DNA from: Trichocoleus sp.
Lineage (GTDB): Bacteria; Cyanobacteriota; Cyanobacteriia; Elainellales; Elainellaceae
Assembly: GCA_036702865.1 (NCBI GenBank)
Contig: DATNQD010000064.1
Span: forward strand, 186,001 to 250,000
Direction of reading: 5' to 3'
DNA: 64,000 nucleotides
A model generated the notes under the pieces. It was not told where the DNA came from. It searched no databases and saw only the letters and a list, made by a program, of their open reading frames with translations. The position numbers were made by a program, and so were the translations under genes. Numbering within the stretch: the stretch's first letter is position 1; each line of letters begins with the position of its first letter. Positions 32,060 through 34,930 of the stretch are shown one piece after another.

Positions 32060-32175
32060 CGTAAAAAATGGATGAACTCCCTCAGTAAACCCGGACACTG
32101 AAGAAATTCTGCGTAAAAGTGGATGGTAGATGCACCCTGATTCAAGCCCCGGAGTTCGCTCTGGGGTTTTTCTTT
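32060..32175 (+). ncRNA. candidate small RNA in the lgt-cobM spacer (plus strand)
   Basis: A textbook terminator closes this stretch (see 32147-32175), but no plus-strand gene precedes it: cobM and lgt are both on the minus strand and alaS ends more than 1.1 kb upstream. A weak TTGAGA/TAAAAA promoter (near 32041 and 32062) would give a transcript of about 100 nt. The 5' end is a guess and no known RNA family was recognised. It would be antisense to the lgt-cobM spacer. Confidence 0.35.
32147..32175 (+). terminator. strong orphan intrinsic terminator (UUCG loop)
   Basis: An 8-bp stem CCCCGGAG / CTCTGGGG closed by a TTCG tetraloop is followed at once by TTTTTCTTT on the plus strand. On the minus strand the hairpin has no U-tract after it, so it does not terminate lgt. 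It therefore marks the end of an unannotated plus-strand transcript, or stops antisense read-through into lgt. Confidence 0.8.
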
Positions 32176-32198: not shown

Positions 32199-33086
32199 TT
32201 AAGCTTCAGTTTGGTCAGAATCAGTTTTAACCTCTCTGGTGCCGATCGTTCCTTCCACCGGGACAACATCCGGCAAGGAGCGTTGAAATCGATACAGCCA
32301 GATTAAACCGATCGTACCAGCGGCAATCCCTGCCAAACTGACCATTTGCGCGATCCGTAGCGGGCCCAGCATCAAGCTGTCCATCCGTAGCCCTTCAACC
32401 CAAAACCGCCCCAGACTATAGCCAATCCAATAAACCAGAAAGATTGTGCCCAGCTTGAGTGGTGGCTTGCCCTTTAGCCCCCGGAAGAACAAAAACATCA
32501 GCAGCGCAAATACGCTCACGTTCCACAAAGATTCATAAAGAAACGTGGGATGAAAGTATTCGTACTGGCTGTAGCCAGGGGGACGTTGAGCAGGCGGAAT
32601 ATAAAGTTTCCAGGGCAAATCAGTGGGGCGACCAAAGGCTTCTGAGTTGAAAAAATTTCCCCAGCGACCGATCGCCTGCCCCAAAATCAGGGATGGCGCG
32701 ACCAAATCAGCAAGCTGCCAGAAGGAAATCCTGTTCAGACGGGCAAAAATTAGCGTAGCCAGAATGCCCCCCAAAATGGCTCCATGAATCGCGATGCCAC
32801 CATGCCAGATGGCAAAGAGTTCAGTGGGGTTGTCTTTGTATTTATCCCACTCAAACGCAACGTAATACAGCCGAGCACAGGGAATTGCTGCCACAACAAG
32901 CCAGATTGCCAGATCACTAATGAAATCCGGATTAACGCCCCGCCGCTTTGCCAGATAAGTCGAGAGGGTGACCCCAATCAGCACGGCTGAGGCAATTAAA
33001 AACCCATACCAGCGAATGGGCAACGGTCCTATCATTGGTCCGGGAGAAGTGAACACTGCAAGCCAAGTCATACAATCCAGTAGCAT
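32199..33086 (-). CDS. lgt: prolipoprotein diacylglyceryl transferase
   Basis: A 295-residue membrane enzyme that transfers a diacylglyceryl group from phosphatidylglycerol to the lipobox Cys of prelipoproteins. It has about seven hydrophobic helices, the [14 protein letters not shown] segment, and the family signature [21 protein letters not shown] with the conserved Arg, Asn and Glu. The C-terminal region ([21 protein letters not shown]) is also conserved. The C-terminal tail after residue 270 is a charged extension. lgt followed by cobM in one orientation is a neighbourhood I recall from other cyanobacteria. Confidence 0.95.
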
Positions 33087-33280
33087 AATGCCTCATGTTC
33101 AAGGGGCAAGGAGCTGGAGGATTTAGGCAAATCCCTCCGCCAGCAGTTCCCACCCTTGATTGTATCGGCAGACGCGAGAAAGGAATGAGGCATGAGGAAT
33201 TGCTCCCTCCTCTACCCCGCATAGCGACAAAACCATTGCTCCCGGAAAAAGGCGATGCTAGGATTGGCTGAAATCGATAA

Positions 33281-33465
33281 GTCAGCCTAATTCAATAGCT
33301 TTGAAGAGATTATCAAGCTGTTGAAGCGGAGGAACCACTTTTTGGGGCTTGTCTGTGATGGGCCGCAGGAGTGAAGGTGGAGCTATCCCAATTCATCCCT
33401 CATCCTTCCAGAAGGGCATCTCCCAGTCCTAGCCCGTCAGCTAACTCCGTCGGCAAGGGGAGAAG
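33281..33465 (+). promoter_or_regulatory. c-di-AMP riboswitch (ydaO-yuaA type) upstream of ArsB/NhaD-type transporter
   Basis: The leader carries the hallmark segments of this class in the right order and spacing: CCTAATTCA at the 5' side (about 33286), GCGGAGGAACCACTTTTTGG at 33326-33345, GGGCCGCAGGAG at about 33359, and the strongly conserved CCGTCAGCTAACTCCGTCGG at 33434-33453 followed by a GGGGAG segment. In the family, c-di-AMP binding turns expression down, and the controlled genes are mostly for potassium, osmolyte or cell-wall functions. The aptamer is on the plus strand about 80 bp before the transporter start. I see no convincing intrinsic terminator after it, so the control may act at translation or by a weaker attenuator. 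Boundaries are approximate. Confidence 0.85.
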
Positions 33466-33547
33466 ACTGAGATGCAGCATTCAATTCACGTTAACGATTG
33501 GACGTTGACAAACATTTTGTGCTCCTCAGCTTCCCGATTCTAGTGCG

Positions 33548-34930
33548 TTGTCCTCTCACAAAGAAGCGAGAAAACCTGTGGAGAACTGGCAAGCGATCGT
33601 CGCAGGCGTCACGTTTTTGAGCGTTATTTTCCTGGTAATGACAGAGTGGATTCACCTCACGGTCGCTGCCTTTCTAGGCGCGCTGCTGCTGGTGTTTACC
33701 AGTGTGATGACGCTGAAAGAAGCGATCGGTTATATCGGCAATAGTTATGCAACGCTGGCATTGTTTTTTGGCGTGATGGTGCTGGTACGTGCCTTCGAGC
33801 CAACTAAAATTTTTGATTATTTAGCGACCCAGATGGTCATTTTGGCAAAGGGGCAAGGAAAACGCCTGCTGCTGGGGATTGTGGCAATTACGACTCCCAT
33901 CTGCGCTGTGTTGCCCAATGCTACAACCGTGATGCTGCTGGCTCCGCTGATTCCACCAATGGCAGCCGAGGTTGGCGTTGATTTTGTGCCGCTGCTGATT
34001 CTGATGGTATTTGTTGCTAATAGTGCAGGCTTGTTGACGCTTGTGGGTGATCCAGCAACCTTTATTGTTGGAGATGCCATCAATATTAGCTTTGTCGATT
34101 ATATGGGACGGCTCAGTTTAGGGGGAGTCGCTGCGATCGTCACGCTCCTGCTGCTGATTCCCTTCCTGTTTCCGCAGATCTGGCATAAGCAATTGCATGA
34201 TTTAGATCATTTGCCGCATCCCAAGATTAACCATCCTAGAGTGCTGGCGTTCGGTGGGTTAATTGTTGCAGCCGTTCTGATCTTCTTTGTGGTGGGCGAG
34301 TTTATGCCCGTTCCCGTGTCTCCGGCAGCAGCGGCTCTCTTGGGTGCGGCCCTGGCACTCTTGCTGGCCCATCAAAGCAAACTTGACACCGTAAACAACA
34401 TTCTGCGCGATGTGGACTGGAGTACGCTGCTCTTTTTTATGTGCATCTTTGTCCTAATTGGAGGACTGGAGAAAACCGGAATTATCAGCAGCATGTCTGG
34501 CGTTCTGGCAGTGCTATTGGGCAGCAATATTGTGCTGGGTTCGATCGCCCTGATCTTTTTCGTCGGTATCATTTCCAGCGTTGTCCCCAATATTCCTCTC
34601 GTGGTGGCAATGGTTCCCCTCTTGAAGCAATATGTGGTGAACGTGGGAATGGTTTCCCCCGAAGTGCTCAGCTCAGGCTATGAGGGGCAATTTCCACCCG
34701 AAGTGCTGCCACTGTTCTACGCCATGATGTACGGAGCAACGCTCGGTGGCAATGGAACTTTGGTTGGTGCATCTTCTAATATTGTGGCGGCAGGCATTGC
34801 TGAGCTTCATGGCAAGCGTATCTCGTTCCAGACATTCCTGCGCTACGGCATTCCAGTCATGATGATGCAGCTACTCACAGCAACAATTTATCTATTGGGT
34901 CGCTTCTTCCTGCTAGATGGCAGAGGATAG
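33548..34930 (+). CDS. ArsB/NhaD (SLC13-like) ion transporter
   Basis: A 460-residue membrane protein with about 11-12 helices in two inverted halves. Family motifs are PNATTVMLLAPLIPPMA (half 1), GDPATFIVGDAIN, and in half 2 VPNIPLVVAMVPLL and GATLGGNGTLVGASSNIVAAG. These fit the ion-transporter superfamily that includes NhaD Na+/H+ antiporters, ArsB and citrate carriers; the substrate is not fixed by the sequence. The first possible start is TTG at 33548; a GTG at 33578 (MENWQAIVAG) is a fair alternative with AAAGAAGCGAG before it. The c-di-AMP riboswitch upstream argues for a role in monovalent-cation or osmotic homeostasis rather than organic-acid uptake (inference). Confidence 0.9.
   Translation: MSSHKEARKPVENWQAIVAGVTFLSVIFLVMTEWIHLTVAAFLGALLLVFTSVMTLKEAIGYIGNSYATLALFFGVMVLVRAFEPTKIFDYLATQMVILAKGQGKRLLLGIVAITTPICAVLPNATTVMLLAPLIPPMAAEVGVDFVPLLILMVFVANSAGLLTLVGDPATFIVGDAINISFVDYMGRLSLGGVAAIVTLLLLIPFLFPQIWHKQLHDLDHLPHPKINHPRVLAFGGLIVAAVLIFFVVGEFMPVPVSPAAAALLGAALALLLAHQSKLDTVNNILRDVDWSTLLFFMCIFVLIGGLEKTGIISSMSGVLAVLLGSNIVLGSIALIFFVGIISSVVPNIPLVVAMVPLLKQYVVNVGMVSPEVLSSGYEGQFPPEVLPLFYAMMYGATLGGNGTLVGASSNIVAAGIAELHGKRISFQTFLRYGIPVMMMQLLTATIYLLGRFFLLDGRG

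What the first reader, a model, noticed from the sequence alone, without database searches (positions are those of the whole stretch)
33281..33548. c-di-AMP riboswitch controls an ArsB/NhaD-type transporter
The leader carries the ydaO-yuaA hallmarks in order (GGAGGAACCAC, TTTTTGGGG, CCGTCAGCTAACTCCGT). Established knowledge: this riboswitch class controls ion, osmolyte and wall genes and is switched by c-di-AMP. The sequence-based substrate of the downstream transporter is open, and this leader suggests a monovalent-cation role. No obvious terminator follows the aptamer, so the control mode is also open.
Basis: partly seen in the sequence, partly recalled or inferred. Interest (0 to 1): 0.65.

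Follow-up and report, generated by a model that had tools for sequence, protein, structure and literature searches.

The report
c-di-AMP riboswitch before anion transporter
A cyanobacterial gene for a membrane transporter, most likely a chloride exporter related to Synechocystis slr0753, sits behind a genuine RNA switch for the signal molecule c-di-AMP that probably blocks its translation; this adds a new member and a likely control mode to a pairing already known in Synechocystis.

Summary
Rfam RF00379 (c-di-AMP aptamer) matches window 33274-33469 (+) at 57.4 bits (gathering score 38). The transporter ORF follows, with its best-supported start at GTG 33578.

The interpretation needs two corrections.

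Substrate: the transporter is a one-copy, 71%-identical orthologue of Synechocystis-type proteins next to eno, i.e. slr0753. The literature calls slr0753 a putative chloride efflux transporter under a c-di-AMP riboswitch (PMC10117731). A monovalent-cation role is therefore not the best guess, and the pairing is already known. Of 41 related genomes with the transporter, 19 carry the aptamer directly upstream.

Control mode: no terminator was found here. Comparison with relatives shows three conserved leader blocks: an aptamer tail (33458-33470), a linker (33522-33535), and the ribosome-binding region (33563-33570). The linker is complementary to both of the others. Linker/ribosome-site complementarity exceeds that of riboswitch-free orthologues (Mann-Whitney p=8e-5). 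I infer a translational OFF switch, although the equilibrium folding test did not confirm switching in the window itself. The genome's second copy precedes an ABC-transporter operon. Relatives of that leader use a terminator with the same logic.

Ordinary kind, new member; moderate interest.

The parts
33274..33469 (+). c-di-AMP (ydaO/yuaA) riboswitch aptamer
   Evidence: RF00379, 57.4 bits, gathering score 38, full model 1-134
33420..33424 (+). 5' half (CUCCC) of the long-range helix closed by the aptamer tail
   Evidence: Pairs with GGGAG 33458-33462. Over 103 aptamers, own pairs average -10.0 kcal/mol against -9.07 +/- 0.15 for permuted pairs (minimum -9.51 in 300), so the two sides covary
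33458..33470 (+). aptamer 3' tail GGGAGAAGACUGA: ends the long-range aptamer helix, or alternatively pairs with the linker
   Evidence: Invariant in the three closest leaders; a tail-linker helix is in the minimum-energy fold of tail plus linker for G000, G023 and G005
33522..33535 (+). linker CUCCUCAGCUUCCC, proposed regulator segment (anti-ribosome-binding-site, or partner of the tail)
   Evidence: Invariant block in otherwise diverged leaders; best partner of the ribosome-binding region in an unbiased scan
33563..33570 (+). ribosome-binding region GAAGCGAG, complementary to the linker
   Evidence: linker:RBS duplex -10.3 kcal/mol, p=0.013 in the window with the chosen linker; -16.8, p=0.003 in G023; -16.2, p=0.033 in G005
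33472..33543 (+). 23-codon upstream ORF (ATG 33472 to TAG 33541-33543) behind a GGGGAG; probably chance
   Evidence: Seen in the sequence; its ATG is absent from G023 and G005
33578..34930 (+). slr0753-type transporter (CitMHS/ArsB superfamily), start GTG 33578; the TTG at 33548 is the first mechanical start
   Evidence: PF03600 CitMHS 204 bits, PF02040 ArsB 65 bits; relatives start with ATG/GTG at this codon; 71% identical to the eno-linked orthologue in a Synechocystis-like genome

Best explanation
This is a c-di-AMP riboswitch that represses a slr0753-type transporter, most likely a chloride (anion) exporter, mainly at translation initiation. With c-di-AMP bound, the aptamer's 3' tail (GGGAG) is held in the aptamer by CUCCC, leaving the linker CUCCUCAGCUUCCC free to cover the ribosome-binding region GAAGCGAG in front of GTG 33578. 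Without c-di-AMP, the tail GGGAGAAGACUGA pairs with the linker and the ribosome-binding region is exposed. Shown here: the aptamer, its conserved linkage to this gene, covariation of the tail helix, and excess linker/RBS complementarity in leaders of this kind. Inferred: ligand binding by this copy, the OFF direction, translational rather than transcriptional control, and chloride as substrate.
For: Aptamer at 57.4 bits. Aptamer directly upstream of the transporter in 19 of 41 transporter-bearing genomes (one of the 19 below the gathering score), over many families, and in 13 of 80 named cyanobacterial loci; in others it is about 1 kb upstream with a small gene between. Tail helix covaries. 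Three conserved blocks equal the three proposed segments. Linker/RBS complementarity: mean z -2.5 in 11 riboswitch leaders against -0.1 in 13 riboswitch-free orthologues, Mann-Whitney p=8e-5, and 4e-4 with one value per clade. In G054, G070, G096 and G008 the purine-rich tail itself lies in ribosome-binding position right before the start codon. No terminator at the window. In relatives' ABC-permease leaders the equivalent linker AGUGUCCUC also forms the 5' arm of a terminator GAGGGACGCU-U7 (reading), the same OFF logic. Literature: verified riboswitch on slr0753, putative Cl- exporter.
Against: Equilibrium folding of the isolated window leader shows only a small gain of RBS accessibility from a free tail (0.53 to 0.67), no larger than from shuffled tails (76 of 200 as good). 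In the window alone the unbiased linker test is not significant (z -0.89, p=0.18). The ribosome-binding sequence is weak. Leaders with 240-390 nt before the gene (G002, G084, G071) show no linker/RBS match, so translational control cannot be universal. Some 22 of 41 orthologues lack an adjacent aptamer. The chloride role rests on suppressor genetics and was described as putative.
Confidence: 0.6

Rival explanations
1. The riboswitch controls the gene by premature transcription termination or through RNA stability, as in the ABC-permease leaders, and the linker/RBS complementarity is secondary.
For: The same tail-linker alternative is tied to clear U-run terminators in ABC-permease leaders of relatives; long transporter leaders in Microcoleus-type loci contain a hairpin plus UUUU.
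Against: No terminator-like site between 33050 and 33700; linker/RBS complementarity is enriched over riboswitch-free orthologues.
Confidence: 0.25
2. The transporter moves monovalent cations (Na+ or K+) or another osmolyte, and c-di-AMP limits it as part of ion homeostasis.
For: c-di-AMP riboswitches often control K+ and osmolyte transport (PMC6488665; PMC3766115); in G097 the gene follows a riboswitch-led cation P-type ATPase; weak NhaD match (51 bits, cut-off 577).
Against: Orthology to slr0753, a putative Cl- exporter; NhaD and ArsB equivalog cut-offs not met.
Confidence: 0.2
3. The aptamer is intact in sequence but no longer a working switch in this genome.
For: Unbiased linker test and folding test are not significant for the window leader alone; one relative (G003) has dropped to 36 bits, below the gathering score.
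Against: All hallmark blocks, the tail helix and the linker are conserved against G023 and G005.
Confidence: 0.1

Closest known systems
c-di-AMP riboswitch of Synechocystis slr0753 (Mantovani et al. 2022, cited in PMC10117731; Kobayashi et al. 2006)
   Same: Same aptamer class upstream of the orthologous transporter; five genomes of one Synechocystis-sized genus carry RF00379 5' of it, four of them directly and one (G097) at the head of an operon with a P-type ATPase.
   Different: Different lineage, longer aptamer insert, and a shorter leader with a linker complementary to the ribosome-binding region; no ligand or expression data here.
ydaO/yuaA c-di-AMP riboswitches of Firmicutes (B. subtilis; B. 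thuringiensis kdp, PMC6488665)
   Same: Same Rfam family RF00379; the expected direction is OFF (established knowledge of the class).
   Different: There the target is K+ or osmolyte transport and, in the kdp case, transcription; here the proposed control is on translation of an anion transporter.
ArsB / NhaD / CitMHS transporters
   Same: Same superfamily (PF03600 204 bits, PF02040 65 bits).
   Different: Below every specific NCBIfam cut-off; forms its own slr0753 clade. From memory it resembles the human P protein/OCA2; that was not tested.

Membership tests
RF00379 c-di-AMP riboswitch | covariance-model score above the gathering score | tested here: met
   57.4 against 38 bits
RF00379 c-di-AMP riboswitch | conserved sequence blocks and long-range tail helix | tested here: met
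   alignment; covariation over 103 aptamers
RF00379 c-di-AMP riboswitch | binds c-di-AMP | not testable with these tools
   needs in-line probing
RF00379 c-di-AMP riboswitch | cis position 5' of an ion, osmolyte or wall gene | tested here: met
   transporter starts about 108 nt after the aptamer; linkage conserved
slr0753-type transporter | orthology to the eno-linked Synechocystis gene | tested here: met
   single best hit, 71% identity; G144 has a ChlN-like gene - eno - aptamer - transporter; G141 the same order; slr0752 = enolase from PMC7885315. The species name of G144 is inferred, not given by the tool
slr0753-type transporter | chloride export | not testable with these tools
   literature only, called putative
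ArsB arsenite pump | NCBIfam ArsB cut-off | tested here: not met
   99 bits, cut-off 457
NhaD Na+/H+ antiporter | TIGR00775 cut-off | tested here: not met
   51 bits, cut-off 577
transcription-terminating riboswitch | intrinsic terminator after the aptamer | tested here: not met
   none at 33050-33700
translational riboswitch | segment complementary to the ribosome-binding site beyond chance | tested here: inconclusive
   as a group p=8e-5; window alone p=0.013 with the chosen linker but 0.18 in the unbiased scan

The most novel reading that the evidence does not exclude
Cyanobacteria use one c-di-AMP aptamer with a common three-segment logic (tail, linker, target) in which the target is exchanged gene by gene: a terminator for an ABC-transporter operon, and the ribosome-binding site for a chloride transporter. 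One signal thereby sets an anion/osmotic regulon by two different modes in the same genome.
Probability: 0.4. Interest if true: 0.5.

Novelty: new member of a known kind. Interest (0 to 1): 0.33.

Why it matters
It moves the gene from 'unknown substrate, perhaps a cation transporter' to an slr0753 orthologue with a testable chloride role. It gives a concrete, mutable model of how c-di-AMP acts in cyanobacteria, where few targets are known. The wider set (transporter, ABC operon, the small gene seen in Nostocales, and a glycosyltransferase that looks sucrose-related) suggests an osmotic/anion regulon.

Tried and rejected
Terminator in the leader: none. Translated 23-codon uORF as regulator: its ATG is not conserved. 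Start at TTG 33548: relatives start 30 nt later. Tail:linker duplex against shuffles: not significant one by one, because purine/pyrimidine composition drives the energy; 29 of 108 leaders at the 5% level over all, but cross-pairing was nearly as good (for single leaders). Equilibrium accessibility test: no clear switch. The primary papers Mantovani 2022 and Nelson 2013 were not held, so their content is cited through PMC10117731 and PMC5986932. The universal-stress-protein reading of the small Nostocales gene was not confirmed: no Pfam match at E<=1e-8. The linker segments were chosen by eye after complementarity had been seen, so its p-values are optimistic; one search is the unbiased repeat.

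Full report
OBSERVATION. The whole-window Rfam scan gives one RF00379 match at 33274-33469 (+), 57.4 bits against a gathering score of 38, E=1.1e-10. The genome has exactly one further copy, on contig C24 (63.4 bits). So the feature is real.

GENE. The ORF after it matches CitMHS (204 bits) and ArsB (65 bits) in Pfam and fails all specific NCBIfam cut-offs, including ArsB, NhaD and MamN. Relatives start at the codon corresponding to GTG 33578, not TTG 33548.

CONSERVED LINKAGE. Of 98 related genomes, 64 have RF00379 and 41 have the transporter at E<=1e-40. Comparing coordinates, 19 of the 41 have the aptamer directly upstream on the same strand: 18 above the gathering score, plus G003 at 36 bits. 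In G097 it heads an operon with a cation P-type ATPase. Of 80 named loci, 13 have it directly upstream. In Nostocales it lies about 1 kb upstream, followed by a small gene and then the transporter (7 of 7 examined).

IDENTITY AND SUBSTRATE. In a genus with 3.7-4.0 Mb genomes (G097, G141-G144), all five members have the aptamer 5' of the orthologue; in four it is directly upstream, and in G097 the P-type ATPase gene lies between. In G144 and G141 the order is a ChlN-like oxidoreductase - eno - transporter. slr0752 of Synechocystis PCC 6803 is enolase (PMC7885315), so the gene beside it matches slr0753; identity to the window protein is 71%. A review states that a c-di-AMP riboswitch regulates slr0753, a putative chloride efflux transporter (PMC10117731). 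Suppressors of the chloride need of a photosystem II mutant map to slr0753 (PMC9896922). The chloride reading is therefore better supported than a cation, and the pairing is not new.

MECHANISM. (a) The aptamer tail pairs back into the aptamer. Over 103 aptamers the two sides fit their own partners better than permuted ones (-9.99 against -9.07 +/- 0.15 kcal/mol). (b) The window leader and its two closest relatives share three blocks in otherwise diverged sequence: tail GGGAGAAGACTGA, linker CTCCTCAGCTTCCC, and GAAGCG(A/G)G before the start. The linker can pair with either of the others, but not with both. (c) In an unbiased scan of whole leaders, complementarity to the ribosome-binding region has mean z -2.5 in 11 riboswitch leaders and -0.1 in 13 riboswitch-free orthologues. 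The best partner is the same linker in the window, G023 and G005. Clades G015/G037/G047/G092 and G079 have near-perfect UCUCCUGG / CCAGGAGA pairs, and in G054/G070/G096/G008 the tail itself lies in ribosome-binding position. (d) Against this: equilibrium folding of the isolated window leader does not show a convincing switch, and the window taken alone gives only p=0.18 unbiased. I therefore hold translational control at about 0.6.

REGULON. First genes after 108 aptamers cluster as 38 ABC permeases, 24 of a small stress-protein-like family, 19 slr0753-type transporters, 6 glycosyltransferases resembling sucrose enzymes, and 5 SucC-like (names beyond the Pfam matches are by eye). In ABC leaders of relatives the linker AGUGUCCUC is also the 5' arm of a U-run terminator (reading, not scored separately), so the same logic appears with another target. 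In the window's genome the second copy precedes an ABC permease, an NMT1-like binding protein and an ATPase.

VERDICT. Real and correctly named riboswitch; substrate guess revised to chloride; control mode narrowed to probable translational OFF; known pairing in Synechocystis; new member of a known kind.

Noticed in passing
window 32124-32175 (+): NsiR1 sRNA (RF02399, 52.6 bits) between a cobalamin-type methyltransferase gene and lgt. RF02399 rings in 34 of 40 related genomes, often with 4-10 copies; NsiR1 is known from heterocyst-forming cyanobacteria (from memory), and whether these genomes form heterocysts was not tested.
   Followed up: partly
L132 (G000:C24:72000-76200): Second c-di-AMP riboswitch of the same genome, before an ABC permease, an NMT1-like substrate-binding protein, an ATPase and a small stress-protein-like gene.
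   Followed up: partly
L163 1098-1757 and relatives: Small protein family next to c-di-AMP riboswitches (24 of 108 first genes) that looks UspA-like by eye but has no Pfam match at E<=1e-8.
   Followed up: partly
L240 3583-8234 (G097): Riboswitch followed by a cation P-type ATPase and the transporter, an operon that suggests paired cation and anion transport.
   Followed up: no
G016:C3:2587-3197, G026:C351:16898-17520: Two c-di-AMP aptamers in divergent orientation about 330-345 nt apart.
   Followed up: no
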